From contig NZ_JYKA01000020.1 in the NCBI RefSeq assembly GCF_001676875.1, forward strand, positions 26,335 to 90,334: a stretch of DNA of 64,000 bases, in the 5' to 3' direction. Within the stretch, counting starts at the first letter, position 1. Every line of letters begins with the position of its first letter. The stretch is from Chromobacterium subtsugae (lineage in GTDB: Bacteria; Pseudomonadota; Gammaproteobacteria; Burkholderiales; Chromobacteriaceae). A program made the position numbers and the translations under genes. The notes under the pieces are model-generated. The model was not told the origin of the DNA and ran no database searches. It saw only the letters and a list, made by a program, of their open reading frames with translations. Positions 3,247 through 42,873 of this stretch are shown here, piece by piece.

Positions 3247-3282
3247 TCAGGCTGTCATTCGAACAATTTTAAGGAAACCGTG

Positions 3283-8301: not shown

Positions 8302-8439
8302 GGGCGGCATCGACGCACTGGTATTTTGGCCAGGGCATGGTTCTCAACAGGATGAGACTTGGCGTCAATCAAATGTCATTGCGATGGCCCGGCCTAGCAT
8401 CCCCGGTTTCGACTGATCGATCCCGTGGGGAAGAACGCA

Positions 8440-10143: not shown

Positions 10144-10324
10144 CTGGCGGAAAGCTTGGCGCGGACAAGCGGACTGCTCGTTTTTGCCGCGCGGACGCGC
10201 GATTCGCCTGGGCGGGAAACTGGCCTGAATCATGGATTTTCTGGCCGGACGACGCCCTTATACTGTGCGCATCGCCAGTTTGGCGGCGGCCAGCGCAGGC
10301 TGGCATTCATCCAGGAGTCGGGAC

Positions 10325-11977: not shown

Positions 11978-11985
11978 GCCGCCGC

Positions 11986-13017
11986 TCAGCCGTTCCAGCG
12001 CTGGGTGTCGGCGAAGAAGCCCGGCACCGGATGGCTGGCGCCCTCGGTTTCGCTTTTCCGGTACAAGAACATCGCCAGGCACAGGTCCAGCACGCCCAGG
12101 CCGAAGGGCGAGAAGATGGTCGGTTTGGCGGGATCCAGGCGGATTTCGCCCTGCATCACTTGCGCCAGCGTGCCGTCGATGAAGCCGCGATGGCCGTAGC
12201 GCTGCTCCGCCAGGTGTGGCGAGGTGTTGGCTTTCATGCAGTGCTCGACGTCGTCCAGCACATTGTTGGCGCCGACGATGGTTTCCGGCGCCAGGTCGCG
12301 CAGCGAGACGTTGAGGATCAGCTGCGACGGCGCGAAGGCGTGGCCGGCGGGAATCCACGGCGTGCCGGCGGTGGTGGCGAGCACCACGATGTCGGCTTGC
12401 AAGGCCTCGTCCCGGCTGGCGGCGCGGATCGGGTAGCGCAGGCTCGCGCCCATATTGCGGGTGAACGCCGCCAGATGCGCATCGTTGATGTCGTAGGCGC
12501 GCACGTCGTCGAAGTGCCAGCCGGCGGCATCGAAGAAGGACAGGATGCTGCCGGCGATCACGCCGCCGCCGATGATGGCCAGCGAGCCGGCGCGCCGGCC
12601 GTGGGGCCATAACTGCTGCGCGGCCAGCACCGCCGACGCGGCGGTGCGCGCCGAGCTGATCTGGGACGCTTCCAGGCAGGCGAACGGATAGCCGGTGCGG
12701 TAGTCGTTGAGCAGCACCACCGCCGAAGCCCGCTGCAGATTAGCGTCGACATTGCCCGGATAGCTGGCTATCCACTTGATGCCGGAGACTTCCAGCGCCG
12801 AATCGGCGTCGCGGATCGCCGCCGGCAGCGCGATGATGCGCGCCTCGGGCCTGTCGGCGAAGCGGAGGAAATAGCTGTCCGGATTGACCGTCTTGCGCTG
12901 GTGGTGCAGCAAATAGGCCTGGCGGATGATGTCGATCACCTCGGTTTTGGCCTGCGCCAGCGCGCCATGGATGAAGTCGCCGGTGATCACGCTGAAATTC
13001 GGGGCGGAGTTATGCAT
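11986..13017 (-). CDS. sbnB: SbnB-like N-(2-amino-2-carboxyethyl)-L-glutamate dehydrogenase
   Basis: A 343-residue member of the ornithine cyclodeaminase/mu-crystallin family. It has the NAD-binding Rossmann motif (SLAIIGGGVIAGS near 145) and the conserved Lys81 in SGIKWIASYPGN. SbnB oxidatively cleaves the SbnA product to L-2,3-diaminopropionate, 2-oxoglutarate and NADH. Its start overlaps the end of sbnA by 8 bases (ATGCATAA), indicating translational coupling. It is the last gene of the leftward serK-sbnA-sbnB unit. In staphylococci this pair feeds staphyloferrin B; here the divergent NRPS and sulfotransferases point to a monobactam instead. Confidence 0.9.
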   Translation of the reverse strand: MHNSAPNFSVITGDFIHGALAQAKTEVIDIIRQAYLLHHQRKTVNPDSYFLRFADRPEARIIALPAAIRDADSALEVSGIKWIASYPGNVDANLQRASAVVLLNDYRTGYPFACLEASQISSARTAASAVLAAQQLWPHGRRAGSLAIIGGGVIAGSILSFFDAAGWHFDDVRAYDINDAHLAAFTRNMGASLRYPIRAASRDEALQADIVVLATTAGTPWIPAGHAFAPSQLILNVSLRDLAPETIVGANNVLDDVEHCMKANTSPHLAEQRYGHRGFIDGTLAQVMQGEIRLDPAKPTIFSPFGLGVLDLCLAMFLYRKSETEGASHPVPGFFADTQRWNG

Positions 13018-13999
13018 AGGTCAGATTCTCGTTGAGCGGTTGGGAGGCCTGGCGCCATGCCGGGCCGAAGCGTTGATCGCACCAGTCGTCGTCGTAGACC
13101 GTGTCCAGGTAGCCGTTGCCCAGGTCGGGCGAGATGGCCACCACCACGGCGTCGGCCGGCAGTTCGGCGTGCAGGCGCCGCACCGCGGCCAGCACCGTGC
13201 CGGTGGACGCGCCGCCCAGATAGCCGTAGCGCAGCGCGACATCGCGGCAGGCGGCGATGGTTTCGGCTTCCGGAATCTGGATCAGCCGGTCCACCGCGGC
13301 GGCGTCGAAGAAGTGGGGCTGCACGCTGGAGCCCAGCCCAGGCAGATAGCGCGCCTGCCCCGGCGTGCCGAAAGTCACCGAGCCTACCGAGTCGACGGCG
13401 ATCAGCCGGGTTTGCGGCGAATGGCCGCGGAAGAACGCGGCGCAGCCCATCAGGGTGCCGGTGGTGCCGGCGCCGACGAACAGGTAGTCGACGCTGCCGA
13501 ACTCGTTCAGGATGGCGCGCGCGGTCATGTCGGCATGGACCGCCGGGTTGGCCGGATTCTGGTACTGGTTCAGCCAGATCCGCTCGGGGTCGCGCGCGAT
13601 GGCCTGGCGGATGTAGGCGAGCCGGTTGCCCAGATAGCCGTTGTGCTCGTCGCGCTGCTCGATCACCACCACGGTGGTGCCCAGCGCGCGCATCATGCCG
13701 ATGTTCTGGGCGCTGGTGTTCTTGTCGACGACGCAGACGAAGTCATAGCCGCGCGCCGCGGCGATCTGGCTTAGCGCCAGGCCCAGATTGCCGGAACTGG
13801 ACTCTATTATCTTCTTGCGGGCCGCGAGCTGGCCGCGCTCCTCGGCGTCGCGGATCAGCGCCATCGCGGTCTTGATCTTGATCGATCCGCCCGGATTGAA
13901 GCCTTCTATCTTCAAGTGCACGTCGCCCGATGGGGAAAATTGCTCGAGCCTCAGGAAAATATCGTCGGAGACGGCTTGTTCGATGGAGTCGTATCGCAT
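13010..13999 (-). CDS. sbnA: SbnA-like N-(2-amino-2-carboxyethyl)-L-glutamate synthase (PLP)
   Basis: A 329-residue cysteine-synthase-fold enzyme. The PLP lysine is Lys41 in GFNPGGSIKIKTAM, and the substrate loop SSSGNLG begins near residue 67. The glycine-rich phosphate loop is GAGTTGTLMG. SbnA condenses O-phospho-L-serine with L-glutamate to give the precursor of 2,3-diaminopropionate, which SbnB releases. The longer open frame up to 14182 is rejected. Its extra 61 residues are Arg/Pro-rich and overlap the upstream gene, while ATG 13999 has an AGGA site 7 bases upstream and gives the family N-terminus. It lies 70 bases after the serK-like gene. Confidence 0.92.
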   Translation of the reverse strand: MRYDSIEQAVSDDIFLRLEQFSPSGDVHLKIEGFNPGGSIKIKTAMALIRDAEERGQLAARKKIIESSSGNLGLALSQIAAARGYDFVCVVDKNTSAQNIGMMRALGTTVVVIEQRDEHNGYLGNRLAYIRQAIARDPERIWLNQYQNPANPAVHADMTARAILNEFGSVDYLFVGAGTTGTLMGCAAFFRGHSPQTRLIAVDSVGSVTFGTPGQARYLPGLGSSVQPHFFDAAAVDRLIQIPEAETIAACRDVALRYGYLGGASTGTVLAAVRRLHAELPADAVVVAISPDLGNGYLDTVYDDDWCDQRFGPAWRQASQPLNENLTYA

Positions 14000-14069
14000 G
14001 CAAGATTCCTGCAGCAGGTGAAAGGAAAATACCGCCGGCAGGCGGGAAGGGCGCGGCCGGGCGCCTGGC

Positions 14070-14501
14070 TCAGGCCCGCGGCGGCAGCAGCTCGTCCAGC
14101 GCGAACCAGCAGCTGCAATCCAGCGCCGGCACCGGCGTGTGCCGGGTGGATTTGGGCGGGTACGGCCGGCCTTCCAGGCCACGCGCGATCACCTCTTCCG
14201 GCGTGACCAGCAGGTCGTCGCGGCGGGCCTCCAGCGCGACGTCGGCGTAGTCCAGCAACAGGCAGGGCACCAGCATCAAGCCGTGGCGCAGCGCGAATTC
14301 GCGGCGATGATGGCCGTCCATCACCACCAGCGTGCGGCGCTCGACCAGGATCGGCGTCTTCCATCCGCCATCGGCCAGCACCCGCGCGGCCACCTCCCCC
14401 AAGCGTTCCGGCAGGAACTCCTCGGTCGGCTTCAGCCGGTCCGGCGGCAGCAGCGCAAGCTTGGGCCTGGCTGCGGCGGTCTCGATTGGCCTCGGATTCA
14501 T
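14070..14501 (-). CDS. SerK/SbnI-like ParB-fold serine kinase supplying O-phospho-L-serine
   Basis: A 143-residue protein consisting mainly of a ParB-N-terminal-like domain. It has the two motifs of the free serine kinase group: an acidic PTEEF segment (Thr26-Glu28) and VVMDGHHRREF (Asp62-Arg66). Archaeal SerK and staphylococcal SbnI phosphorylate free L-serine. O-phosphoserine is the substrate of SbnA, which is encoded directly downstream, so provision of that substrate is the likely task. It is much shorter than SbnI (about 250 residues), lacking most of the C-terminal regulatory part. ATG 14501 is preceded by AAGGGGTG. It is the first gene of the leftward unit, about 100 bases from a good promoter at 14610-14638. 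Confidence 0.75.
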   Translation of the reverse strand: MNPRPIETAAARPKLALLPPDRLKPTEEFLPERLGEVAARVLADGGWKTPILVERRTLVVMDGHHRREFALRHGLMLVPCLLLDYADVALEARRDDLLVTPEEVIARGLEGRPYPPKSTRHTPVPALDCSCWFALDELLPPRA

Positions 14502-14609
14502 GTCACCCCTTGTGCGGAATATCTAAACCACCGGCCGGTCCCGCATGCGCAGGGCGGCCATGGATTGATCAGGGAAAGCGCTTATATGTTTTTTGCATAA
14601 TCAAATGAC

Positions 14610-14638
14610 ATTAGACAATGCAGGTATGAGATTGTCAA
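14610..14638 (-). promoter_or_regulatory. Sigma70-type promoter for the serK-sbnA-sbnB unit
   Basis: On the minus strand TTGACA (14638-14633), a 17-base spacer and TCTAAT (14615-14610) match the sigma70 consensus at 11 of 12 positions. Transcription would start near 14602 and give a leader of about 100 bases before the ATG at 14501. Confidence 0.65.
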
Positions 14639-14743
14639 CTTAAGCTCACGCGCGTGATGCGCGATCGGGAATCCCTGCTAATGGCCAGTTCGAAGCTGCT
14701 CTTTGGGATGAATTTCCGGATTGAATTGTTTGAGGAAATTTTT

Positions 14744-14784
14744 ATTCATAATGAATTGAATTTTTGATATGTGTAATGTATAAG
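14744..14784 (+). promoter_or_regulatory. Sigma70-type promoter with adjoining dyad for the NRPS-side unit
   Basis: TTGAAT (14756-14761), a 17-base spacer and TATAAG (14779-14784) predict a start near 14791. A perfect dyad ATTCAT-A-ATGAAT (14744-14756) abuts the -35 box and may bind a regulator. The 14502-14887 stretch is markedly A+T-rich compared with the flanking genes and otherwise holds no gene I can support. Confidence 0.55.
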
Positions 14785-14887
14785 TTCGTCATATACCAAA
14801 GTCATTTGTTCATTTGCTGTGGCGAGGCGGCTGGTCCGGCGGCATCGCGGCGCCTTGCCCAGCCAAACCGAAATTTGCGAGGCATGG

Positions 14888-15505
14888 ATGGGCAACCGCA
14901 TTTCTCCCGATTACGCCACCCCCCACTCTCCCCAGCCGCTTACCGGCGCGCCGGCGGTGTTGTGGCTGACCGGCATTTCCGGCGCCGGCAAAACCACCAT
15001 CGCCAGCCATCTCAAGCAGTTGTGCCTGGCATCCGGCCATGCGGCGGCGATGCTGGACGGCGACGAGCTGCGCGGCCGGCTGAACGCCGATCTGGGTTTC
15101 TCTGAGAGCGACCGGGCCGAGAACGTGCGGCGCATCGCCGAAGTCGCGGCGCTGATGGCGGACGCCGGCCTGCTGGTGATCGTGTCCTGCATTTCGCCGC
15201 TGGCGTCTTTCCGCCTGGCGGCGCGCGACATCGTCGGCGCGCAGCGCTTCGTCGAGGTTTACATCGACACGCCGATCGATGTCGCCGAAGCCCGCGACCC
15301 CAAGGGCCTGTACCGGCTGGCCCGCGCCGGCAAGATCACCGGCTTCACCGGCCTGCACGCGGCTTACGAGCCGCCGCGGGAGCCGGCGATCCGGATCGAT
15401 ACCACGGTCACCGGCGTGGAAGCGGCGGCGGAGCGTCTGCTCGGCCATTACCAGGCGATGGCGCGCGCGGCGGCCACCCGCGCCGAGGCTGGCGTTTGTG
15501 GCTGA
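14888..15505 (+). CDS. cysC: Adenylylsulfate (APS) kinase, PAPS supply
   Basis: A 205-residue P-loop kinase. It has Walker A GISGAGKT (29-36), the DGDELRGRLNADLGF segment typical of APS kinases with the following SDRAENVRR, and FTGLHAAYEPP near the C-terminus. It phosphorylates APS at the 3' position to give PAPS, the sulfonate donor. It stands alone, without cysD or cysN, as the first gene of an operon with two sulfotransferases. A dedicated PAPS supply for product sulfonation is therefore likelier than assimilatory sulfate reduction. The ATG at 14888 has GAGG 5 bases upstream. A longer frame back to 14819 lacks a good start. Confidence 0.9.
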   Translation: MGNRISPDYATPHSPQPLTGAPAVLWLTGISGAGKTTIASHLKQLCLASGHAAAMLDGDELRGRLNADLGFSESDRAENVRRIAEVAALMADAGLLVIVSCISPLASFRLAARDIVGAQRFVEVYIDTPIDVAEARDPKGLYRLARAGKITGFTGLHAAYEPPREPAIRIDTTVTGVEAAAERLLGHYQAMARAAATRAEAGVCG

Positions 15506-15535
15506 GCGCGGCGCCGGAACGAGGGAGCGCTGGCG

Positions 15536-16819
15536 ATGGCCTTAGCTGCGCTGCGCGCCTGGTGGGCGGATCTGTCAGGCCCGTTCGCGTACCGAACCTT
15601 CACCGTCGTCTGGCTGACCAGCCTGGCTGCCAATGTCGGCTATACGGTGCAGGGCGTGGGCGCGTCCTGGGCGATGGCGTCGATGGCGCCGACGCCGACG
15701 ATGGTGGCGCTGGTCCAGACCGCGGCCAGCGTGCCGATCGCCCTGTTCGCATTGCTGTCCGGCGTGGCGGCCGACGCCTGGGACCGCCGCGCGGTGATGC
15801 TGGCGTCGCAGGCGCTGGTGTTCGCCGTCGCCGCGGCCTTGACCGGCTTCAGCGCCGCCGGCTATCTGGCGCCGGCGATGATTCTGGCCTGCACCTTCCT
15901 CAATGGCTGCGGCGCGGCCTTGTTTCAGCCGACCTGGCAGTCGTCGGTGGCCGAACAGGTGCCGCGCAGCCAGCTGTCCGCCGCGATCGCCCTGGACAGC
16001 TTTTCCTTGAATTTCGCGCGCGCCGCCGGGCCGGCGTTCGGCGGACTGATCGTGGCCAGGTTCACCCCTGGCGCGGCGTTCTTGATCAGCGCACTGGCCG
16101 GCGCGGTGATGATCGCGGCGCTGTTGTCGTGGAAACGGCCGCCGCCGCGCCGGCACCCGCGCGAGAAGCTGTTGGCGGCGCTGGCCGGCGGCGTCGCTTA
16201 TTGCTGGCGCGCGCGGCGGATGCGCGACGCGCTGTTCCGCAGCGCGCTGTTCGGTTTTCTCGGCAGCCCGGTTTGGGCGTTGCTGCCGCTGTTCGCCAAG
16301 CAGCAGTTCGGCGGCGCCGCCGGCACCTACGGCATGCTGCTGGCGGCATTCGGCGTCGGCGCCACCGCCGGCGCGCTGGGCGGAGCCGCGCTGCGGGCGC
16401 GCCACGCCAAGGAAACGGTGGTGCGCGGCGGCGCTTTCGCCTTTGGCCTGGGCATTATCGCCGCCGCCGTGAGCCCGGCGCTGCCGGGCACGCTGCTGGG
16501 CCTGTCCGTCGCCGGCGCCAGCTGGGTGGCGTCGGTGTCCACTTTCAATCTTTCGATTCAAACCGGCGCGCCCGACCGGCTGGCGGGCCGGGCATTGTCC
16601 CTGTTCCATTCCTGCATCATCGGCGGCATGTCGCTGGGCAGCTTCGCCTGGGGCTGCGTGGCGGAGCCGCTCGGCGTGGGGGCCGCGCTGCTGATGTCGG
16701 GCCTGTTGATGTCGGCGTCGTGCCTGCTGGGCTGGCTGCTGCCGCTGGCGGAGGCGGACGAGCCGGACGCGGTCCTGGCGGTGAGCGGTGCCGGCGGAAT
16801 GGACGGCCACTGCAAATGA
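15536..16819 (+). CDS. MFS exporter (EntS/DUF894-like)
   Basis: A 427-residue transporter with about 12 hydrophobic helices. It has the cytoplasmic loop 2-3 motif GVAADAWDRRAVML and FQPTWQSSVAEQVPRSQL, as in the EntS-like group of major facilitator exporters. Members export siderophores and other secondary metabolites with proton exchange. Its position inside the biosynthetic operon makes it the likely product exporter and possibly the main self-protection. It lies 30 bases after the APS kinase gene. Its stop codon overlaps the next start (ATGA at 16816-16819). Confidence 0.85.
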   Translation: MALAALRAWWADLSGPFAYRTFTVVWLTSLAANVGYTVQGVGASWAMASMAPTPTMVALVQTAASVPIALFALLSGVAADAWDRRAVMLASQALVFAVAAALTGFSAAGYLAPAMILACTFLNGCGAALFQPTWQSSVAEQVPRSQLSAAIALDSFSLNFARAAGPAFGGLIVARFTPGAAFLISALAGAVMIAALLSWKRPPPRRHPREKLLAALAGGVAYCWRARRMRDALFRSALFGFLGSPVWALLPLFAKQQFGGAAGTYGMLLAAFGVGATAGALGGAALRARHAKETVVRGGAFAFGLGIIAAAVSPALPGTLLGLSVAGASWVASVSTFNLSIQTGAPDRLAGRALSLFHSCIIGGMSLGSFAWGCVAEPLGVGAALLMSGLLMSASCLLGWLLPLAEADEPDAVLAVSGAGGMDGHCK

Positions 16820-18267
16820 ACAAGAGCGAAGCGATGAAGACGATTGCGATTATCGGCGCCGGTTTTTGCGGCGCGACTCTGGCGGCGCGGCTGTTGCGGC
16901 AGCCGCCGGCCACGCCGCTGCGGGTGGTGCTGATCAATCGGTCCGGGCCGATGGCGCGCGGCGTGGCGTATGGCAGCCGCACCGCGACCCAGGTGCTGAA
17001 CGTGCCGGTGGGCAGGATGGACGCGCTGTCGGAGCGGGGCGACGGGTTTTACCGTTATGTCCGCCAGCGGATCGCCGACGCCGCGCCCGGCAGCTTCGTC
17101 GCGCGCAGCCTGTACGGCGATTACCTGGAGCAGCTGTTGCGGGACGCCGAGCGCGACGCGCCGGCGGGAGCGAGCTTGCGCACCGTGGTTGGCGGCGTGG
17201 CGGCGTTGCGGCCGCGCGCCGATGGCGAGGGTGCGCGCTTGACGCTGGATGACGGCAGCGCGCTGGACGCCGACCGGGTGGTGCTCTGCGTCGGCAACTA
17301 CGCGCCGCTGGATCCGCCCATCGCGGCGGCGCAGCGCAGGTTTTACGCCAGCCGCCGCTACATCCGCGACCCCTGGGCGCCGGGCGCGCTGGCGCGTGTC
17401 GCGCCGGAGCAGCCGGTGCTGGTGATAGGCAGCGGCCTCACCATGCTGGACATCCTGCTGGAGCTGCGCGAGCGCGGCCATCGCGCGCCCATCCACGCGA
17501 TATCGCGCCGCGGCCTGGCGCCGCAGGCGCACCGGGCGCTGGACAACCCGCCGCATTACGACGAGTCGCTGTTGCACGCGATGCTGAGCGAGCCGACCGC
17601 GCGCAACTACCTGAGCCTGGTGCGCGGCGCGGCGGCGCGCCATGCGCGCGGCGGCGGCGACTGGCGCGACATCGTCGGCGGCTTGCGCGCCCGCACCCCG
17701 GAGCTATGGCAGGCCTTGCCGCTGCCGGAACGGCGCCGCTTCCTGCAGCGGCTGCGGCCGTTCTGGGAGGTGCATCGGCACCGCTGCGCGCCGCAACTCG
17801 GGGAAAGGCTGCGCGCCGAACTGGCGAGCGGCTCGCTGCGCCTGCTCGCCGGCCGGGCCATCGCCTACCGCGAGACCGGCGACGGCGTGGAGGCGACGCT
17901 GCAGCCGCGCGGCGGCGGCGAGGCGCTGCGCCTGCAAGTGGGGGCGGTGATCAACTGCACCGGCCCGCGCGGCGATGTCCGCCGGCTGGACGAGCCGCTG
18001 CTGGACAGCCTGCAAGCCGACGGCCTGCTGGTGCCGGACGCGCTCGGCCTGGGGTTCGAGCTGGACGAGCGCTACGCGCTGCGCGACAGCGCCGGCGTCG
18101 CTTCCCGCTGGCTGCACTACGTCGGCCCTTTCCTTAAGGGCCGTTACTGGGAGGCGACCGCGGTGCCGGAATTGCGCGTTCATGTCGCGCGGCTGGCCGA
18201 GGCCTTGAGCCTGGACTGCGGCGATGAAACGCGGCTGCGGCAGCCGGCGCAACCGGCAAGCGCGTGA
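16816..18267 (+). CDS. FAD/NAD(P)-binding protein of unknown role in the NRPS operon (COG4529-like)
   Basis: A 483-residue protein. It has an N-terminal FAD-binding glycine motif (IGAGFCGATLAARLL, starting near residue 11) and ARGVAYGS, typical of the NAD_binding_9/COG4529 group. A second dinucleotide motif, VLVIGSGLTMLDILLEL, lies near residue 204. These proteins are related to flavin monooxygenases, but their reactions are mostly unknown. It is translationally coupled to the exporter (ATGA) and overlaps the possible GTG start of the NRPS. An internal ATG at 16834 is an alternative start. A tailoring oxidation is possible, but the expected monobactam chemistry has no obvious need for it. Confidence 0.75.
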   Translation: MNKSEAMKTIAIIGAGFCGATLAARLLRQPPATPLRVVLINRSGPMARGVAYGSRTATQVLNVPVGRMDALSERGDGFYRYVRQRIADAAPGSFVARSLYGDYLEQLLRDAERDAPAGASLRTVVGGVAALRPRADGEGARLTLDDGSALDADRVVLCVGNYAPLDPPIAAAQRRFYASRRYIRDPWAPGALARVAPEQPVLVIGSGLTMLDILLELRERGHRAPIHAISRRGLAPQAHRALDNPPHYDESLLHAMLSEPTARNYLSLVRGAAARHARGGGDWRDIVGGLRARTPELWQALPLPERRRFLQRLRPFWEVHRHRCAPQLGERLRAELASGSLRLLAGRAIAYRETGDGVEATLQPRGGGEALRLQVGAVINCTGPRGDVRRLDEPLLDSLQADGLLVPDALGLGFELDERYALRDSAGVASRWLHYVGPFLKGRYWEATAVPELRVHVARLAEALSLDCGDETRLRQPAQPASA

Positions 18268-18299
18268 GCGCCGCCGACGACATTTTCCGAAGAGCGGCG

Positions 18300-21200: not shown

Positions 21201-23861
21201 GAGCCGCTGAGCGCGGCGGTCGGCGCCGCCGCGCGCGCCGAAGCCGCAAGCGACGCCGCCGGCCTCAGCATGGCGCGGCGCCAGGGCGACCTGCGGCTGG
21301 GACGGGATCTGGTGCCGCATCTGGTGGAAAACCACGCCCAGGACACGCCGGAGCAGATCGCGCTGATCTGCAACGAGCGCAGCTACAGCTACGAACAGTT
21401 GAACCGCGCCGCCAACCGGCTGGCCAATCACCTGCTGGAGCAGTTTCCGCAGTTGGGCGCGGACAGCCTGGTGGGCGTGCGCATCCCGCGCGGGGACAAG
21501 CTGGTCATCGCCATCCTGGCCTTGTGGAAGGCCGGCGCCGCCTATATCCCGCTCGACCCCGTCCTGCCGGCGCAGCGGGTGCGGGACATGCTGGAAACCG
21601 CCGGCGCGGCGTTCGTGATCGCCGACAGCGTCGAGGCGGCTGCCGACAACGCCGCCGCGCTGGGTATGCGCGCGGTGTCTTACGACGCCGTCGAACAGTT
21701 GCCGGGACTGGACGAGCGCAATCCGGATGTGCACATCTCCGGCAACGACCTGAGCTACGTGCTGTACACCTCGGGCTCCACCGGCAAGCCCAAGGGGGCG
21801 ATGGTCGAGCATATCGGCATGCTCAACAACATCGTCAACAAGGCGATCGACTGCAAGGTGACCGAATCCAGCCGGGTGGCGCAGAACGCGTCGATGAGTT
21901 TCGACGTGTCGGTCTGGCAGATGTTCATCGCGCTGGCGCGCGGCGGCGCCACCGTGGTGTACGACGATCGCGCGGTCAACGATGTCGCCGGCCTGCTGGC
22001 GCGGCTCGCCGCCGACCGGGTCACCGTGCTGGAAGTGGTGCCGACCTATCTGTCGGTGCTGGTCGAGCATATCGAGGACAAGCACCCGGGTGGGCTGGCG
22101 CTGAGCGTCCAGTACCTTTTGGTGACCGGCGAGACGATAGAGGCGTCGCTGCTCAAGCGCTGGTTCAAGCTGTTCCCGCACACTCACGCGGTGAACGCCT
22201 ATGGGCCGACCGAGGCGTCGGACGACATCACCCATCACCTGATGTCGGCGGGCGATGCGCTGGAGAATCCGGTGCCGATCGGCCGCGCGCTGGCCAACTT
22301 CGACGTGTACATCGTCGACGACGAATTGCGGCCGCTGCCGTACGGCGAGATGGGTGAAATCGTCGTCACCGGCGTCGGCGTCGGCCGCGGCTACGTCGGC
22401 ATGGCCGGCGCCACCGCGCAGGCCTTCCTGGACAGCCCATTCCCGGACAAGTACCGCGGCCGGCTGTACAAAACCGGCGACCTGGGCGTGATGCGGCCGG
22501 ACGGCGTGCTGCTTTATCACGGCCGCAAGGACAAGCAGGTCAAGATCCGCGGCATGCGCATCGAGCTGGAAGACGTGGAGCTGGCGCTGCAGGCCTTGCC
22601 GGCGGTGCGGCAGGCGGCGGTGCTGGAAATCCGCCCGGCGGGGCGCGAGGCTTTCCTGTGCGCCTTCGCGGTGGCGCGCGCCGACGGCGAGCGCGAAGCC
22701 ATCGTCGCCGAACTGAAGGAAAAACTGCCGCCCTATATGGTGCCGTCGGTCTTCCGCTTTGAAAGCGAGCTGCCGCAGCTGCCCAGCGGCAAGATAGACC
22801 GCCGCGCGCTGCTGGCCGGTTACGAAGAGACGGCGCCGCGCGCCGCCTGCGTCGAGCCGACCAACGAGGTCGAGCGCCGGCTGGCGGATATCTGGCGCGA
22901 GGTGATCGGCAGCCAGGCCATAGGCATCAGCGACGACTTCTTCGATGTCGGCGGCGACTCCTTCAAGGCGATCCGCATCGCGGCCAAGTACGGCGCGCCG
23001 CTGGAGGTCACCCATCTTTACGACTACCCGACGATAGCGGCACTGGCCGAACATCTGGCCGGGCTGGACGGCGACGCGCAAAAGACGCTGACGCCGATCG
23101 CCGGCGATCCGGTGCAAGCCGAGGCGATGCTGCTGTGCATCGCCAATTCGGGCGGCGGACCGGTCAGCTTCATCGAGATGGGCCGGGCATTCTCCGCCGC
23201 TGGCGTGCCGTTGGCGGCATGCGCGGTGAACCTGCCGCGCAACGAGGTGGACGACGATGCCGCGATGGTGGCGGAGGTGGAGCGGCTGGCGGCGGAGGTC
23301 TGCGACGAATTGGGCCGGATGTCGTCTTTGCCGCTGATGGTGTTCGCGCAGTGCAACGGTTCGGCGCTGGCGCTCGGCGTCGTGCGCGAATGGAAGCGGC
23401 GCGGCGCCGACCTGCGCGCGCTGTGCATAGGCGGGGCCTTGCTGCGCACCGAGCCGACGCCGAAGGATGTGCGCAGCGACGAGCAGATCGTGGCCTTTCT
23501 CGGCTCCATCGGCTCCACGCTGCCGGCCGAGGCCGACGAGCGGGCGTTCTTCCTGCACGACTTCAGCTACGACTGCCACATGGCGGACAGCTACTACAAC
23601 CACTTGGTGCGGGAGCGGGCCGCTGAGGCCGGCGAGCGCATCGGCGCGCCGGTGTTCTGCCTGGTGGGCACCGAGGACCCCATCGTGTCCGGCTACGCCG
23701 AGCGTTATCGCGACTGGGGCCTGCTCTCCGACGAGGTGAGCCTGATCGAGTATCCGGGCATCGGCCATTACCTGCTGCGCGATTGCCCGGCCGAACTGGC
23801 CGCCTCGCTGGCCGACATCTGGCGCCGCGTCGGCGGCAAGGAGGCGAGAAATGGCCGCTGA
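18300..23861 (+). CDS. NRPS: T - inactive E-like - C - A - T - cysteine thioesterase (candidate monobactam synthetase)
   Basis: 1853 residues from ATG 18300 (GTG 18264, ATG 18318 and ATG 18330 are alternatives). Domains in order: carrier T1 (Ser96 in AGGDSIAS); a condensation-fold domain of epimerase type (about 147-520) whose HHxxxDxxSW motif is replaced by ARQAAVDAASW, so probably dead; a condensation domain with intact HHSIIDG (680-686); an adenylation domain (about 1003-1504) with all core motifs (YTSGSTGKPKG, NAYGPTE, YKTGDLG, LPSGKIDRR); carrier T2 (Ser1554); and a thioesterase (about 1600-1850) with Cys1685 in AQCNG replacing the usual Ser, plus Asp1793 and His1823. The specificity code read against GrsA is D-V-W-E-L-T-A-D-D-K, an acidic pocket suited to a diamino acid. 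With Dap genes divergent, Dap is the likely substrate. A cysteine TE closes the beta-lactam in sulfazecin. Confidence 0.9.
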   Translation: MNSRIEMREPMLAREEAPPADAAWTPLRAGADGVPRACDMTADDWLLAYDVDAQLADGGAPAAAGLESALREIWQSVLGVEGLSATDNFFAAGGDSIASVQLAAQARAKGIALSAQDLLRHQTIAALAASASQASPERQPSQGRLALRPAQLAALDGGAVSRRLLQVPEEMDERFLQAWLRALHAGHDALRLRFARQGGEWRAEFRADADALAREARDGRAASSMPPQPQADAGPVLMAALEKGRDGARLWLSARQAAVDAASWRTILADLRAAFDEWRRRGAISARGAAGFGRYQEWCEKREGEPRQAAWLAAGGEWVLAPVAELDAARSAAMLESGLRKHRARPEELLLAAALLAACRWSGERALTLRLAQDGRAADAELAATVGQFDVERGLTLALAAGELAPGAAILAAKEGCRAQTQELGDAGRTARLAFRYDGDFDAPAAARAGIARLALPNDDDDAGGPPLRLRGERRDGCLRLTLSCRAAAVPAQGLDVLAARLDEALRELAEHCADPAQAASLSPSDFPGLGLTAAELAGWRQRFPALEQLSPATGMQIGMVFHSQLPGHADAYTNQAYLTLEGELDAGWFREAWRIVIERHPALRAGFVGFEREQPLQLAVAAPALDWREEDLRGQAPDAFERWRQADRQTPFDFGRPPLMRFLLARVGEQSHRFCWTHHHSIIDGWSVTLVWDEVFEAYRALRAGQEPALPPAPSFAEAAFWRHGQPREEGLRYWRETLAGIGPRAALRIEQPGLPPLGGEASKSRRRLSEQATRRLTEMARAGQTTLAATMQAAWALLLAHYSGQSDVVFGVTSAGRTIDLPGVERIVGPLINTVPARFALDPGARLGDWLRTVRDMHLLRDRHASIDLIDIQRQSGLRADQPLFDSVVIVDNYPAADYGAATALRVSERGYAGETHYGLTLSVMPGARLAFDIEFDSSRFHKKDIDAMADKLESVLTRMPQNLAEPLSAAVGAAARAEAASDAAGLSMARRQGDLRLGRDLVPHLVENHAQDTPEQIALICNERSYSYEQLNRAANRLANHLLEQFPQLGADSLVGVRIPRGDKLVIAILALWKAGAAYIPLDPVLPAQRVRDMLETAGAAFVIADSVEAAADNAAALGMRAVSYDAVEQLPGLDERNPDVHISGNDLSYVLYTSGSTGKPKGAMVEHIGMLNNIVNKAIDCKVTESSRVAQNASMSFDVSVWQMFIALARGGATVVYDDRAVNDVAGLLARLAADRVTVLEVVPTYLSVLVEHIEDKHPGGLALSVQYLLVTGETIEASLLKRWFKLFPHTHAVNAYGPTEASDDITHHLMSAGDALENPVPIGRALANFDVYIVDDELRPLPYGEMGEIVVTGVGVGRGYVGMAGATAQAFLDSPFPDKYRGRLYKTGDLGVMRPDGVLLYHGRKDKQVKIRGMRIELEDVELALQALPAVRQAAVLEIRPAGREAFLCAFAVARADGEREAIVAELKEKLPPYMVPSVFRFESELPQLPSGKIDRRALLAGYEETAPRAACVEPTNEVERRLADIWREVIGSQAIGISDDFFDVGGDSFKAIRIAAKYGAPLEVTHLYDYPTIAALAEHLAGLDGDAQKTLTPIAGDPVQAEAMLLCIANSGGGPVSFIEMGRAFSAAGVPLAACAVNLPRNEVDDDAAMVAEVERLAAEVCDELGRMSSLPLMVFAQCNGSALALGVVREWKRRGADLRALCIGGALLRTEPTPKDVRSDEQIVAFLGSIGSTLPAEADERAFFLHDFSYDCHMADSYYNHLVRERAAEAGERIGAPVFCLVGTEDPIVSGYAERYRDWGLLSDEVSLIEYPGIGHYLLRDCPAELAASLADIWRRVGGKEARNGR

Positions 23862-24633
23862 GCTGCCGAAACTGGCATTCGTGCATATTCCCCGCACCGC
23901 CGGCACCGCGTTCGGCCATGCTCTGGACCAGCTGTACCAGGGCCGCCGGACGGCGAAGTTCTACGCCGACGAGGAGGTCAAGGTGGCCAATGGCAAGATC
24001 GAGGCCTTCTGCCGGCTGGATGGCGCGGACAAGCAGGGCTTCGATCTGCTGCGCGGCCATTTCGTCCACGGCTTCGACCCGGCGCTGCGCGGCTTCGACT
24101 ACGTCGCGCTGCTGCGCGAGCCGGTGCGGCGGCTGATTTCCTATTACTTCTACGCGCTGAAGGACAAGCGCAACTACCTGCATTCCTATCTGCTGAAGCG
24201 GCGGCTGGGCCTGGAGCCCTTCCTGCTCAGCGACGCCAGCATAGACCTGGACAACTACCAGGTGCGGGCGATATCGGGCGCGCAATTCGCCTCGGTGCGC
24301 GAACCGGTGTCGCAGCAGCATTGCGACGAAGCCAAGCGCAAGCTGGCCGAGGAGTTCGCCGCCTTCGGCTTGACCGAGCGCTTCGACGAGTCGATGGCGC
24401 GCTTCGCGCGCAAGTTCGGCTGGAACTTGCCGGCGCCCGGCAAGATGAACGCCGGCAGCTACGGCCCCGAACTGGAGCTGTCGGCCGCCTGCAGGGAGCG
24501 GGTGCTGGAGAAGAATCGTTTCGACGTCGAGTTGTACCAGTTCGCCTGCCGCCTGTTCGAGGCCGGCGGCGCGGCGGCGGAACAGGCCGGGATACCCATT
24601 GCACAGGAGAGGACAGAAGATGGCTACGCTTGA
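23851..24633 (+). CDS. PAPS-dependent sulfotransferase (Sulfotransfer_2-like), candidate N-sulfonating enzyme
   Basis: A 260-residue protein. The 5'-phosphosulfate-binding motif is FVHIPRTAGTAF (residues 10-21) and a 3'-phosphate-binding motif LLREPVRRLISYY starts near residue 87. This pattern is that of the Sulfotransfer_2 group of carbohydrate and small-molecule sulfotransferases. It overlaps the NRPS stop by 11 bases and has a strong AAGGAGG site (23837-23843), so it is made together with the synthetase. In sulfazecin a sulfotransferase sulfonates the carrier-bound chain in trans before the cysteine TE acts. This gene, adjacent to the TE, is the best candidate for that step. Confidence 0.85.
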   Translation: MAAELPKLAFVHIPRTAGTAFGHALDQLYQGRRTAKFYADEEVKVANGKIEAFCRLDGADKQGFDLLRGHFVHGFDPALRGFDYVALLREPVRRLISYYFYALKDKRNYLHSYLLKRRLGLEPFLLSDASIDLDNYQVRAISGAQFASVREPVSQQHCDEAKRKLAEEFAAFGLTERFDESMARFARKFGWNLPAPGKMNAGSYGPELELSAACRERVLEKNRFDVELYQFACRLFEAGGAAAEQAGIPIAQERTEDGYA

Positions 24634-25489
24634 AATTCGCCCGCTCAGCGGCACCATAGGCGCGGAAGTGCGCGGCTGCGACGTCAGCCTGACGCCGTCG
24701 CCGGAGTTGGCCGGCGAAATCCGCCGCGCGCTGCTGCAATACAAGGTGCTGCTGTTCCGCGGCCAGCCGGCCTTGTCGATGGCGCGGCAGATCGCCTTCG
24801 CCCAGGCTTTCGGCGAGATCGAGACCGAGTTCCCGTCGTTCGCGCCCAAACTGGCCGAGAACCCGGAAATCACGCTGTTCGACAGCCGCAACGGCAGCGG
24901 CCGCGCCGAAATGTGGCATACCGACCTGACGGTGTCGGAGACGCCGACCGCTTTCGGCGTGCTGTGCGTGAAGGAGCGTCCGGCGCGCGGCGGCGACACG
25001 ATGTGGGCGGATTCCGAGGCCGCCTACGCCTCGCTGTCGCCCGGCATGCGCGCCTTTCTGGAAGGCCAGCGCGCGGTGCACGACATGTACTCGCCGGAGT
25101 ACGCCGCGCGGCCGGGCGGCAACAAGCGCACCGATCTCGACATGTCGCGGATTTCCCGCGCCGAGCATCCGCTGGTGCGGGTCCATCCGGAAACCGGCCG
25201 CAAATGCCTGTTCGTCAATCCCTTCTTCACGTCCCACATCGTCGGCTTCAGTTCGGAAGAGAGCGCCAACATCCTCAACTTCCTGTACGCCCGGATGGAG
25301 CGGCCGGAGTTCATCGTCCGCTGGCATTGGTCGGAAGGCGATGTCGCGATGTGGGACAACCGCTGCACCACCCACGTGGCGGTCAACGACTACGGCGACG
25401 CGCATCGGCTGGCGCAGCGGGTGTGCGTGAAGGGCGACGCGCCGTTCGGCGTGGGCGAAGCCCGGCGCGCCGCGCTGGAAACGGCCTGA
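24620..25489 (+). CDS. TauD/TfdA-family Fe(II)/2-oxoglutarate dioxygenase
   Basis: A 289-residue protein with the iron-binding triad His100-x-Asp102 (MWHTDLT) and His252 (CTTHVAV), followed by HRLAQRV, whose Arg binds 2-oxoglutarate. The start VRGCDVSLT and SFAPKL segments fit taurine-dioxygenase-like enzymes. It would hydroxylate the Dap-derived C3 position of the ring or its precursor. The next gene, a methyltransferase, could then convert the hydroxyl to methoxy. ATG 24620 overlaps the preceding gene by 14 bases and has AGGAGAGGA upstream. The longer frame from 24599 is less likely. Confidence 0.88.
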   Translation: MATLEIRPLSGTIGAEVRGCDVSLTPSPELAGEIRRALLQYKVLLFRGQPALSMARQIAFAQAFGEIETEFPSFAPKLAENPEITLFDSRNGSGRAEMWHTDLTVSETPTAFGVLCVKERPARGGDTMWADSEAAYASLSPGMRAFLEGQRAVHDMYSPEYAARPGGNKRTDLDMSRISRAEHPLVRVHPETGRKCLFVNPFFTSHIVGFSSEESANILNFLYARMERPEFIVRWHWSEGDVAMWDNRCTTHVAVNDYGDAHRLAQRVCVKGDAPFGVGEARRAALETA

Positions 25490-25517
25490 CGGCCGGCGGC
25501 GCAGCCGCGGATAAAGA

Positions 25518-25541
25518 GCGGCCGGGCATCGCGCCGGCCGC
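25518..25541 (+). other. Stem-loop in the operon before the methyltransferase gene
   Basis: GCGGCCGG and CCGGCCGC pair perfectly around an 8-base loop and are followed by GTGGTTTTC. The T-run is too short for a firm terminator. It could attenuate transcription or protect an mRNA end within the operon. Confidence 0.4.
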
Positions 25542-25562
25542 GTGGTTTTCACTCACTTCAAT

Positions 25563-26429
25563 ATGGGTAGCAAGATGTCGAACCAAGCAGGCGTGGCAGT
25601 CGTTGACTTCAATGGATCGATATTCCTCGAATCCAGCAATGTGCGGGCGCAGGCCAATCGGTTGAATTGGCGCTCCGAGGTGTTGATGGGCCGCAACCCC
25701 GATTGTTTCAAGGGCAAGCGCGTGCTCGACCTGGCCAGCCATGACGGCCGCTTCATGCACGCGGCGCTCAAGCACGGCGCCAGCAAGGTGATAGGGGTGG
25801 AGGCGCGCGAAGAGCACGTGATCCACGCGCGCCACAATCTGAGCCGCGCCGGACACGCGCCGGACAGCTACCAGGTGCTGTGCGGCGACCTGGTCGAGCA
25901 CCTGAAGCAGATCGAGACCGGTTCGGTGGACACCGTGCTGTGCTTCGGCGTGTTCAGCCACCTGATCGAGCAGGTGGAGATCATTCGCGAGATCCGCCGC
26001 ATCGCGCCGGGCGCCTTCATTCTGGACACCTGGGTGGCGAAGGAGCAGTGGAACCTGCGCGAGCGGCTGCGCAACCACAAGGTCAACCTGTGGGTGCGCG
26101 ACACCCAGCAGGGCGGCGACCGCGGCCTGTCCTTGCTGGCGCGCTTCAAGCGGCTGATGGCCAGCGTGTTGCCGGGGCCGGGCAGCAAGGTGGGCAGCAT
26201 GGTGCTGCTGTACGAGGACCCGCAGGCGCCGGGCGCGACGGTGCGCCCCAGCGGGCTGATGGCCTGGGCCAACCGCTCGGCGCTGGAAATGCTGTTCGAG
26301 CACTTTGGCCTGGAGCATGCGCGGGTGGACTGGATGGCGCAGCGGGTCAGCGACTGGACCGACCTGGAAGACTACCGCAACGGCTCGCGCGAGAGCTGGG
26401 TGGTGCGGCCGGGACGCCGCGCGTCCTGA
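25563..26429 (+). CDS. Class I SAM-dependent methyltransferase, candidate O-methyltransferase
   Basis: A 288-residue protein. Motif I is VLDLASHDGRFMHAAL (starting near residue 53), followed by VIGVEAREEHV (motif II) and DTVLCFGVFSHL (motif IV). This is the Rossmann-like SAM-binding fold. The methyl acceptor is not shown by the sequence. Its place directly after the TauD-type hydroxylase suggests methylation of the new hydroxyl to a methoxy group, the C3 decoration of methoxy-monobactams. The start is uncertain: ATG 25563 and ATG 25575 are both possible, neither with a strong ribosome-binding site. Confidence 0.8.
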   Translation: MGSKMSNQAGVAVVDFNGSIFLESSNVRAQANRLNWRSEVLMGRNPDCFKGKRVLDLASHDGRFMHAALKHGASKVIGVEAREEHVIHARHNLSRAGHAPDSYQVLCGDLVEHLKQIETGSVDTVLCFGVFSHLIEQVEIIREIRRIAPGAFILDTWVAKEQWNLRERLRNHKVNLWVRDTQQGGDRGLSLLARFKRLMASVLPGPGSKVGSMVLLYEDPQAPGATVRPSGLMAWANRSALEMLFEHFGLEHARVDWMAQRVSDWTDLEDYRNGSRESWVVRPGRRAS

Positions 26430-26436
26430 AGCGTTT

Positions 26437-26457
26437 GCCGCGCCCGCCGGGCGCGGC
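26437..26457 (+). other. Stem-loop between methyltransferase and second sulfotransferase genes
   Basis: GCCGCGCCC, loop GCC and GGGCGCGGC form a 9-bp all-GC stem just after the methyltransferase stop. No T-run follows, so it is a possible pause or mRNA-processing element. Confidence 0.35.
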
Positions 26458-26475
26458 GCTTGAAAGAGCGATGGC

Positions 26476-27474
26476 ATGAGAAAGATATACCTGCGCCGCG
26501 TGAGCGGCGTGACGCATGGCGAGAGCACCAGGATGGTGCGGCCGGACGATTTCGCCAGCGATATCGTCGCCGCGGTGGATGCGGCGGCGCAGATAGAGGA
26601 CTTCGGCCGCTACCTGCCGCTATGCGTGGACTGGCGCGCCGAGCGCCTGCGCTACAGCCGCTGGGAGGACGCGTCGCCGCTGTCGGACGCGCCGTTCCTG
26701 TACCAGCGGCAGCGACGGCAGGCGGCCATGCTGGCCGACATCCCGTTCGAGCGGCTGCCTGAACTGGGACAGGCCGAAGGCATGACGCCGACCTTCATCT
26801 TCTCGATCGGCCGCTGCGGCTCCACGCTGCTGTCCAGGATGCTGGCCGCGGTCGGCGAGCAGGCGGTGTCGGAGCCGGACGCGCTGACCAATATCGCCCT
26901 GGTCGACAACGCCGAACAGGGCCGGCAGGCGGCCGAGGCGGGCGAGCTCATCGTGCGCAGCTGCGTCGAGGCGTTGCGCCGCGCCTGCGGCCCGTCGCCG
27001 GTGATCAAGCTGAGGGCGGTGTGCAATCTGGCGGCGGCGGCGTTTGTCCGCGCGCTGCCCAACGCCCGCTATGTGTTCATGTTCCGCGGGCGGGAGGACT
27101 GGGTGCGTTCCTATTCGCGCGCGTTCGGCGACAGCGCGGCCGAGCTGGAGGCCCTGCTGCGGCAGTCGGCGCAGGCGTTTCAGCACCTGCGCGCGGCCGG
27201 GGCCGAGCCGGAGCTGGTGTGGTACGAGGACCTGCTGGCCGACCCGGCCGCCGCGCTGCGGCGCATCTTGCCGCACCGCGCCGACCTGGCGGCGTTCGAG
27301 GCGCCATTGGCGGAGGCCTTGCGCGCCGACGCGCAGCAAGGCTCCATCCTGGCGCGCTCGACGCTGGCGGCGCGCCCGGTGGCGGATGGCATCGTCGAGG
27401 AGTTCGAGGATTTGTGGCGGCAGTCGCGGCCGGAGGGCTTGTTGCGGGAGGCGGGGCTCGCGCGCCTGCTGTGA
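26476..27474 (+). CDS. Second PAPS-type sulfotransferase-like protein
   Basis: A 332-residue protein. Residues about 107-121 hold FIFSIGRCGSTLLSRML, a P-loop-like 5'-phosphosulfate-binding motif of a sulfotransferase group distinct from that of the gene at 23851. AVSEPDALTNI follows, and a 3'-binding candidate is FMFRGREDWVRSYSRAF. The first 100 residues are an extra N-terminal domain without a family I recognise. It closes the biosynthetic operon, 46 bases after the methyltransferase and before a bidirectional terminator. Either this protein or the earlier one could be the N-sulfonating enzyme. A second sulfation, or a kinase-like role, cannot be excluded. Confidence 0.7.
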   Translation: MRKIYLRRVSGVTHGESTRMVRPDDFASDIVAAVDAAAQIEDFGRYLPLCVDWRAERLRYSRWEDASPLSDAPFLYQRQRRQAAMLADIPFERLPELGQAEGMTPTFIFSIGRCGSTLLSRMLAAVGEQAVSEPDALTNIALVDNAEQGRQAAEAGELIVRSCVEALRRACGPSPVIKLRAVCNLAAAAFVRALPNARYVFMFRGREDWVRSYSRAFGDSAAELEALLRQSAQAFQHLRAAGAEPELVWYEDLLADPAAALRRILPHRADLAAFEAPLAEALRADAQQGSILARSTLAARPVADGIVEEFEDLWRQSRPEGLLREAGLARLL

Positions 27475-27510
27475 GGGCGGGCCGGCTTGGAAGCTGGCCG
27501 GCGGAAAAGC

Positions 27511-27539
27511 AAAAAGCCAGCTCGGAGAGCTGGCTTTTT
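27511..27539. terminator. Bidirectional intrinsic terminator between the NRPS operon and tRNA genes
   Basis: AAAAAGCCAGCTC, a short GGA loop and GAGCTGGCTTTTT give a strong stem with A- and T-runs on either side. It can stop the rightward biosynthetic operon and the leftward tRNA transcript. Confidence 0.9.
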
Positions 27540-27547
27540 GACTGCGC

Positions 27548-27624
<77 letters not shown>

Positions 27625-27659
27625 GCGAGAAACCGCTTGCGCGTTTTCTCATCAAACTG

Positions 27660-27736
<77 letters not shown>

Positions 27737-27766
27737 ACATTTCGATGCCTTCGCACCGAGACGCGA

Positions 27767-27795
27767 ACTATACTTAGGCCCCCTCGGGCTGTCAA
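27767..27795 (-). promoter_or_regulatory. Near-consensus tRNA promoter
   Basis: On the minus strand TTGACA (27795-27790), a 17-base spacer and TATAGT (27772-27767) are followed by a GC-rich discriminator (TCGCGTC), the hallmark of stringently controlled stable-RNA promoters. Confidence 0.85.
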
Positions 27796-27823
27796 GCGCC
27801 TTTTGCGAGATTGTGGCGAAGCC

Positions 27824-33196: not shown

Positions 33197-33199
33197 TCC

Positions 33200-34840: not shown

Positions 34841-34897
34841 TGATGGCATCCGGCCGGCCCGACTGGGCCGGCCTTGTTACGTGGATATTGGCTAGCG

Positions 34898-35428: not shown

Positions 35429-35444
35429 TTAGAGGTTTCGCACC

Positions 35445-36011: not shown

Positions 36012-36063
36012 GTTTTGTCCGGGCGGCCCGCCTGGCCGCCCTCATCCGAATATCGAGAAGACC

Positions 36064-37161: not shown

Positions 37162-37165
37162 GGGG

Positions 37166-41633: not shown

Positions 41634-41638
41634 AAACT

Positions 41639-42868: not shown

Positions 42869-42873
42869 TTTTG

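What the first reader, a model, noticed from the sequence alone, without database searches (positions are those of the whole stretch)
11986..27474. Complete candidate monobactam biosynthetic cluster in two divergent units
The sequence shows, in one 15.5-kb block: serine kinase-like, SbnA and SbnB (L-2,3-diaminopropionate); APS kinase; an exporter; an NRPS ending in a cysteine TE; two sulfotransferases; a TauD-type dioxygenase; and a methyltransferase. Published work on sulfazecin showed that a Dap-ended chain is N-sulfonated in trans and then cyclised to the beta-lactam by a noncanonical cysteine TE. C. violaceum is reported to make SQ 26,180, a minimal 3-methoxy monobactam. The gene set accounts for Dap, sulfonation, ring closure and methoxylation. 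I infer an SQ 26,180-type product. I do not know whether this locus has already been assigned.
Basis: partly seen in the sequence, partly recalled or inferred. Interest (0 to 1): 0.95.

Follow-up and report, generated by a model that had tools for sequence, protein, structure and literature searches.

The report
Gene cluster for the simplest monobactam
A 15.5-kb block of eleven genes in Chromobacterium subtsugae matches, in the same order, genes in and beside the cluster that makes the antibiotic sulfazecin, but it lacks the enzyme modules that add sulfazecin's two side-chain amino acids, so it likely makes the stripped-down monobactam SQ 26,180, for which the literature searches made here turned up no assigned gene cluster.

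Summary
Observation confirmed; the monobactam reading is supported and sharpened. The synthetase ends in a QCN cysteine thioesterase nearest to SulM's. The host matches C. subtsugae (TE 99%), the species to which the SQ 26,180 strain ATCC 31532 was moved. New here: the synthetase is a SulM without its first C-A (Ala) module, and its epimerase has lost three motifs. SulI's Glu-loading A-T is absent; only a stand-alone APS kinase remains. The genome gives only generic NRPS matches to both lost modules. A line cut back to T-(dead E)-C-A-T-TE fits an acetyl-only head, the recalled structure of SQ 26,180. The acetyl loader is unknown, so 'complete' is unproven. The second sulfotransferase may instead serve a bulgecin-type potentiator; relatives of four genes beside sul lie on another contig. 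No product was tested.

The parts
11986..13017 (-). SbnB-type dehydrogenase (L-Dap supply)
   Evidence: TIGR03944 387 bits, cut-off 327; 65% to P. acidicola homolog
13010..13999 (-). SbnA-type synthase (L-Dap supply); start taken at the ATG at 13999
   Evidence: TIGR03945 398 bits, cut-off 350; 68% to P. acidicola
14070..14501 (-). short SerK/SbnI-like protein, predicted O-phosphoserine supply
   Evidence: weak SerK match, 32 bits vs cut-off 380; 63% to P. acidicola gene at the same place
14888..15505 (+). stand-alone APS kinase, homolog of the APS-kinase domain of SulI (PAPS supply)
   Evidence: PF01583; 64-65% to SulI residues 302-474, against 45-49% to the three other matches in that genome
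15536..16819 (+). MFS exporter
   Evidence: PF05977; 59% to the P. acidicola gene after sulI
16816..18267 (+).
   Evidence: PF13454; 53% to the gene just upstream of sulM; 31-36% to the N-terminal part of four FAD-APS kinase fusion proteins
18264..23861 (+). NRPS: SulM homolog lacking the N-terminal C-A; T1-(dead E)-C-A-T-TE
18486..18707 (+). T1 carrier domain (aa 75-148), serine motif GGDSI intact
   Evidence: PP-binding 81-141; 0 of 71 changes against P0004
18708..19898 (+). degenerate epimerase domain (aa 149-545)
   Evidence: HHxxxDG reads RQAAVDA, EGHGRE reads AQDGRAA, HHGLGYG stretch missing
19899..21263 (+). C domain with intact HHxxxDG
   Evidence: PF00668; HHSIIDG
21264..22838 (+). 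A domain, predicted L-Dap, code DVWELTADD at the 9 positions read
   Evidence: PF00501; code
22839..23858 (+). T2 carrier and QCN cysteine thioesterase (C1697, D1805, H1835)
   Evidence: 8w2d E 8e-113; residues
23851..24633 (+). SulN homolog, N-sulfotransferase
   Evidence: PF03567; 62% to the gene after sulM
24620..25489 (+). SulO homolog, TauD-type 2OG dioxygenase (C-3 hydroxylation)
   Evidence: PF02668; 65%
25563..26429 (+). SulP homolog, methyltransferase (3-methoxy)
   Evidence: PF13649; 64%
26476..27474 (+). Sulfotransfer_3 protein, possibly for a bulgecin-type compound rather than the monobactam
   Evidence: PF13469; 55% to the P. acidicola sulfotransferase beyond sulP

Best explanation
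This is a sulfazecin-type monobactam gene cluster whose assembly line lacks the modules for both head amino acids, and it likely makes the acetyl-headed monobactam SQ 26,180. Predicted steps: the SerK-like protein, SbnA and SbnB supply L-2,3-diaminopropionate (Dap), and the APS kinase supplies PAPS. The A domain loads Dap on T2. The C domain joins an acetyl group, likely held on T1, to the Dap alpha-amine. The SulN-type sulfotransferase sulfonates the beta-amine. The QCN thioesterase closes the four-membered ring and releases the product. SulO- and SulP-type enzymes add the 3-methoxy group, and the MFS protein exports it. Shown here: gene content, order, homology, the missing modules, the degenerate epimerase and the conserved active-site motifs. 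Carried over from sulfazecin biochemistry: the chemical steps and their order. Inferred and untested: the acetyl head, how acetyl is loaded, and the product.
For: Eleven of 11 window genes have P. acidicola homologs in the same order and orientation. TE: QCN motif, two Arg positions, Asp and His match SulM. A code DVWELTADD: 9 of 9 with B. ubonensis, 7 of 9 with SulM module 3. The synthetase aligns to SulM only from SulM's first carrier onward, with no C-A before it; the C. subtsugae record P0004 (1845 aa) is also without it, starting 18 residues further in. In the own genome the SulI A-T and the SulM C-A find only generic NRPS matches (best 39% and 38%). Epimerase motifs are lost, and the E relic diverges 3.4 times as fast as C-A-T-TE between two C. 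subtsugae sequences, against 1.4-1.7 in five intact-E pairs. TE 99% to C. subtsugae; ATCC 31532, the strain of the SQ 26,180 paper, is C. subtsugae. SulI/M/N/O/P biochemistry: PMC11298585 and PMC6097109.
Against: No enzyme that would put acetyl on T1 was found in the block. The genome holds other NRPS A domains that could load T1 in trans. The APS kinase-A-T fusion was seen only in P. acidicola among the 120 hits listed, so the stand-alone kinase may be the older state and not a remnant of SulI. The strain of this window is unknown, and the cluster was not checked in ATCC 31532 itself. The E-relic rate rests on small counts (12 and 12). The acetyl structure of SQ 26,180 is recalled, not read here.
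Confidence: 0.84

Rival explanations
1. The product is a monobactam with an amino-acid or other acyl head that is loaded on T1 in trans by an A domain encoded elsewhere; it is not SQ 26,180.
For: T1 keeps its serine and is unchanged between two C. subtsugae sequences, 0 of 71; other A domains exist in the genome.
Against: On the window's contig the only match to the SulI A domain is the NRPS itself. The best matches elsewhere to the lost modules are generic (39%, 38%) and sit in large multimodular frames. The species' reported monobactam has, from recall, only an acetyl head.
Confidence: 0.12
2. The cluster is a decaying, non-functional sul cluster: the lost C-A, the dead E and the shrunken gene set are pseudogene steps.
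For: Loss of C-A, an E relic with lost motifs and in-frame gaps, faster change in the relic.
Against: All 11 frames are open; the remaining C-A-T-TE keeps catalytic motifs and differs at only 12 of 1323 positions between two C. subtsugae sequences; a strain now placed in this species is the subject of a paper titled as a monobactam report (reference seen).
Confidence: 0.04
3. A variant of the best explanation (not exclusive of it as to product): the C domain takes acetyl-CoA directly, and T1 plus the dead E are only a structural remnant.
For: No loading enzyme in the block; the E relic is degenerate.
Against: T1 shows no change while its neighbours change (small numbers). In SulM reconstitution the donor was presented on PCP2 (PMC11298585, passage seen).
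Confidence: 0.35

Closest known systems
sulfazecin (sul) cluster of Paraburkholderia acidicola ATCC 31363
   Same: 11 of 11 window genes have homologs in the same order and orientation, including SulM C-A-T-TE, SulN, SulO, SulP, Dap genes, APS-kinase domain, MFS and FAD protein; the eleventh lies just beyond sulP
   Different: No SulI A-T (Glu), no SulM C-A (Ala), degenerate E domain; no outer-membrane-factor-like gene between MFS and FAD (named from its sequence); no ATP-grasp gene before the second sulfotransferase
E-less SulM homolog of Burkholderia ubonensis (P0006), isosulfazecin type
   Same: Nearest named C-A-T-TE outside the species, 65%; sister clade at 100/99 support; identical A code at 9 of 9 positions
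   Different: P0006 keeps the first C-A and has no E domain
SQ 26,180 of C. violaceum ATCC 31532, now C. subtsugae
   Same: Same species; methoxylation and N-sulfonation genes present; no amino-acid head modules
   Different: No product link was tested; the window's strain is not known to be ATCC 31532
bulgecin cluster, recalled to lie beside sul (Horsman 2017, not held)
   Same: The second sulfotransferase is 55% to the one beyond sulP in P. acidicola
   Different: The other genes found there are not in the 64-kb window's cluster; relatives of four of them are on another contig, C12 about 280.4-288.0 kb

Membership tests
sulfazecin-type (SulM TE) monobactam cluster | TE with Gln-Cys-Asn nucleophile motif and catalytic Asp and His | tested here: met
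   Q1696 C1697 N1698, D1805, H1835; these columns are invariant in the 10 TEs aligned
sulfazecin-type (SulM TE) monobactam cluster | positive residues near the substrate (R2849, K2854, R2858 in SulM) | tested here: met
   R1728 and R1737 kept, K2854 position is Pro: two of three. The paper asks for two of three 'arginine positions'; which three was not stated in the sections read
sulfazecin-type (SulM TE) monobactam cluster | last A domain selects L-Dap | tested here: met
   Code DVWELTADD vs SulM DVWEMNADD, 7 of 9 read positions; 9 of 9 with B. ubonensis; substrate not assayed
sulfazecin-type (SulM TE) monobactam cluster | Dap biosynthesis genes SbnA and SbnB | tested here: met
   Both above NCBIfam cut-offs
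sulfazecin-type (SulM TE) monobactam cluster | sulfotransferase SulN next to the NRPS | tested here: met
   62%
sulfazecin-type (SulM TE) monobactam cluster | SulO dioxygenase and SulP methyltransferase | tested here: met
   65% and 64%, same order
sulfazecin itself (gamma-D-Glu-D-Ala head) | SulI A-T, SulM C-A and active E domain | tested here: not met
   A-T and C-A absent, E motifs lost
SQ 26,180 cluster | no amino-acid head modules | tested here: met
SQ 26,180 cluster | an acetyl-loading step | tested here: inconclusive
   No acetyltransferase family and no second A domain among the Pfam matches of the 11 genes; T1 intact
SQ 26,180 cluster | cluster present in strain ATCC 31532 | not tested
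   Only a species match is shown; no record of that strain was opened
SQ 26,180 cluster | NRPS-dependent production of the compound | not testable with these tools
   Needs a knockout and mass spectrometry

The most novel reading that the evidence does not exclude
The cluster is a modular antibiotic assembly line cut back by evolution to its warhead: both amino-acid head modules are gone, and a carrier with a dead epimerase now starts the chain with acetyl without any A domain. The same operon also carries a sulfotransferase for a bulgecin-type potentiator made from a distant locus, and an FAD enzyme tied to sulfate activation, so that antibiotic and potentiator are wired together.
Probability: 0.3. 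Interest if true: 0.8.

Novelty: new variant of a known kind. Interest (0 to 1): 0.66.

Why it matters
SQ 26,180 is among the first monobactams described, the class behind aztreonam (recalled), and no title or abstract start in the listings seen here assigns its genes. The locus makes that link directly testable by one knockout. It also offers a minimal monobactam synthetase with one full module, useful for reconstitution and for asking how an NRPS starts with acetyl when no A domain precedes its first carrier. It shows how a two-amino-acid head can be lost while the warhead machinery is kept, and it points to an uncharacterised FAD protein that sits beside SulM-type genes in two genera and is fused to APS kinase elsewhere.

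Tried and rejected
A role for the flanking AidB-like and HypX-like genes (8425-11977) was rejected as unsupported. In the genus the AidB-like gene and the Methyltransf_28 gene downstream lie less than 3 kb apart in 6 of the 14 other genomes that have both, and none of those carries the TE. Four of these 6 were read: the gap is 0.3 kb in one and holds another long frame in two. In the other 8 the two genes are 8-82 kb apart (3), or far apart or on different contigs (5), so synteny is broken there and says nothing.

A regulatory signal between the divergent units: the sigma-70 scan found none; a lux-box-like pattern (consensus recalled) gave 111 hits over the window, more than the shuffles, but none between 14379 and 15316.

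The APS kinase as a fission product of SulI: kept only as possible, because the kinase-A-T fusion appeared in 1 of 120 listed hits (of 1608) and that hit is P. acidicola itself.

Structure of T1 plus E relic: mean pLDDT 60, pTM 0.44; Foldseek ranks chains with PCP-E or E-C parts first, but with TM about 0.29-0.36 and rmsd about 17-20 A. It says only that the segment still resembles PCP-E and is not used further.

Distribution: the genome-contig scan gave 20 stretches and 1 confirmed locus, so it says little about spread. The protein search scored only the 7993 candidates sharing most words and gave 24 hits: 18 SulM-type at 47-99% (two of them, P0010 and P0015, cut at the start) and 6 distant at 22-27%.
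Full report
Observation. One gene was missed: a PF13454 FAD/NAD(P)-binding protein at 16816-18267 between exporter and NRPS. The window lies in a 4.81-Mb genome of 76 contigs, and the TE is 99% identical to a protein named from C. subtsugae (P0004, 17 member sequences).

Comparison with sulfazecin. A TE alignment used as query in genome contigs confirmed one locus, P. acidicola ATCC 31363, the sulfazecin producer. tblastn of the 11 window proteins against this locus and the DNA upstream of it found all 11, in the same order and orientation: SbnB 65%, SbnA 68%, SerK-like 63%, APS kinase 65% (to a domain of SulI), MFS 59%, FAD protein 53%, NRPS (C-A-T-TE 58%), SulN 62%, SulO 65%, SulP 64% and a second sulfotransferase 55%. 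P. acidicola has extra genes in between: an outer-membrane-factor-like gene between MFS and FAD (named from its sequence, no family search) and a TupA-like ATP-grasp gene before the second sulfotransferase. For the function of SulI, SulM, SulN, SulO and SulP I rely on PMC11298585 (abstract and introduction, and the active-site section, read; passages) and PMC6097109 (passages).

Thioesterase and A domain. The PCP-TE matches 8w2d and 8w2c at E 8e-113 and 2e-89; the call names them only 'Non-ribosomal peptide synthetase', but the aligned sequence is that of SulM's TE (P0018). The beta-lactone TE of ObiF1 follows at 7e-35. Gln-Cys-Asn, the R2849 and R2858 equivalents, Asp and His are kept; the K2854 position is Pro, as it also is in two of the six rows printed from outside the species. 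In the SulM model K2854 sits near the Glu carboxylate, so its loss fits a product without Glu, but weakly. The A code, read by motif anchoring to PheA positions that I recalled, is DVWELTADD at 9 positions (the script added the tenth, Lys, without reading it); 9 of the 19 rows share it, the two C. subtsugae rows included, and SulM reads DVWEMNADD.

The amputated head. SulM is C-A-T-E-C-A-T-TE after an N-terminal segment (Pfam, where the E domain counts as a third condensation-type stretch; the paper's module list). The window NRPS aligns to it only from the first T onward. Its first about 74 residues align to the tail of the lost A domain without the GK motif (weak). The E region keeps about 394 of 483 alignment positions of SulM; HHxxxDG reads RQAAVDA, EGHGRE reads AQDGRAA, and the HHGLGYG stretch is missing. 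For comparison, HHxx[VI]DGVSW is present in all 10 of the proteins that show EGHGR and are not cut before it (an eleventh, P0010, is a partial record). Between the window and P0004 the relic differs at 12 of 394 positions plus a 2-residue gap, T1 at 0 of 71 and C-A-T-TE at 12 of 1323: ratio 3.36, Fisher p 0.005. Five pairs with intact E give ratios of 1.41-1.71, so E domains change faster even when intact, but less so. This fits relaxed constraint on the relic; the counts are small. A tree of C-A-T-TE with 19 rows puts C. subtsugae beside three E-less rows around B. ubonensis (100/99). P0006 of that clade and P0018 and P0020 outside it keep the first C-A by Pfam; the other full-length rows are of like length but were not checked domain by domain. 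Loss of C-A in C. subtsugae is the simplest reading. E-less rows also occur in another part of the tree (P0008, P0015). PMC5472815 (passages) reports an E-less SulM for isosulfazecin, the precedent for E loss.

Initiation module. SulI of P. acidicola is APS kinase plus a Glu A-T (1089 aa). The window has a stand-alone APS kinase, 64% to that domain and 45-49% in the three other matches of that genome. The SulI A-T and the SulM N-terminal C-A were sought in the own genome: 25 and 24 matches, best 39% and 38%, generic NRPS. A protein search with the SulI kinase domain listed 120 of 1608 hits; only P. acidicola has the kinase-A-T fusion there, so fusion in that lineage and fission in this one cannot be told apart. 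Either way the Glu-loading module is absent from the block.

Link to SQ 26,180. Strain ATCC 31532 was published in 1982 as C. violaceum (Wells et al., title 'SQ 26,180, a novel monobactam') and placed in C. subtsugae in 2020 (PMC7648793, passages; Wells seen only as a reference). A synthetase without head amino acids plus SulO and SulP homologs is what such a product would need. The acetyl loader is not identified.

Distribution and borders. The TE is found in 1 of 61 family genomes searched and 1 of 19 in the genus, the window's own in both. Flanking genes are present in 15 of 19 (AidB-like) and 19 of 19 (Methyltransf_28) genus genomes, own included. In 6 of the 14 others with both they lie under 3 kb apart; four were read. 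The cluster therefore looks like an insert between them, within 11978-27823.

The FAD protein. Among the 120 listed hits, four proteins of 1028-1077 aa join PF13454 at the N-terminus to APS kinase at the C-terminus (Pfam rerun on two of them). The window protein aligns to their N-terminal parts at 31-36% over about 420-430 residues. Together with its place beside SulM in two genera this suggests a role in sulfate activation or transfer. That is inference.

The second sulfotransferase. In P. acidicola it is followed by a split transketolase, a 363-aa protein, an acyltransferase and a SerC-like aminotransferase (names from sequence and from the Pfam matches of their relatives). I recall that the bulgecin cluster lies beside sul (Horsman 2017; cited in PMC11298585, not held). 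Four of these genes have relatives at C12 about 280.4-288.0 kb of the own genome (51%, 48%, 33%, 49%), with an asparagine-synthase-like gene and two glycosyltransferase-type genes. Two other transketolase-type matches in the genome reach 47% and 42%. In a draft assembly the two loci are on different contigs; by the contig lengths (C12 395,173, C13 90,334) they are at least 0.1 Mb apart. Neither window sulfotransferase has a match in the 20-kb stretch read there; the rest of the genome was not searched for sulfotransferases. The transketolase half is in 1 of 19 genus genomes at E 1e-60, the window's own, the same pattern as the TE. I recall that C. violaceum was reported to make bulgecin-type potentiators SQ 28,504 and SQ 28,546. 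So this sulfotransferase may act on a potentiator. Untested.

Literature. The ten searches listed no paper whose title or abstract start assigns SQ 26,180 genes or describes this locus. Passages were seen of PMC11019792, PMC4787774, PMC7648793, PMC5686522, PMC8988990, PMC11237616, PMC5472815, PMC6097109 and PMC12283262, and sections of PMC11298585; other listed papers were not opened. PMC11298585 mines SulTE clusters, but its main text does not name Chromobacterium; its supplement was not seen. The main sulfazecin and bulgecin cluster papers are not held, so an earlier mention cannot be excluded.

Verdict. A real monobactam cluster by every sequence test made, a new variant of the sulfazecin kind with a lost peptide head, very likely that of SQ 26,180.

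Noticed in passing
own genome C12:280400-288000 (L028 10339-18036): Candidate bulgecin-type locus on another contig: split transketolase, a 357-aa protein without Pfam match, Asn-synthase-like gene, two glycosyltransferase-type genes, acyltransferase; four genes related to those beside sul in P. acidicola; transketolase half in 1 of 19 genus genomes.
   Followed up: partly
16816-18267: PF13454 FAD protein beside the SulM homolog; four listed homologs are fused to APS kinase. Function unknown, possibly in sulfate activation.
   Followed up: partly
8425-11977: Formyltransferase/enoyl-CoA hydratase fusion (HypX-like, name recalled) and AidB-like acyl-CoA dehydrogenase next to the cluster; the AidB-like gene is in 15 of 19 genus genomes.
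   Followed up: partly
3280-5619: 779-aa protein with glucosaminidase and NlpC/P60 domains, followed at 6332-7291 by a protein with an X-Tfes XVIPCD domain, a domain recalled from interbacterial effectors.
   Followed up: no
31889-47232: Surface polysaccharide genes: UDP-glucose dehydrogenase family, oxidoreductase, two DegT aminotransferases, flippase-like protein, three glycosyltransferases, capsule-type epimerase.
   Followed up: no
53269-55518: 749-aa protein with a peptidase M30 domain.
   Followed up: no
14070-14501: Serine-kinase-like protein of only 143 aa, 63% identical in P. acidicola, far shorter than the 244-position SerK profile.
   Followed up: no
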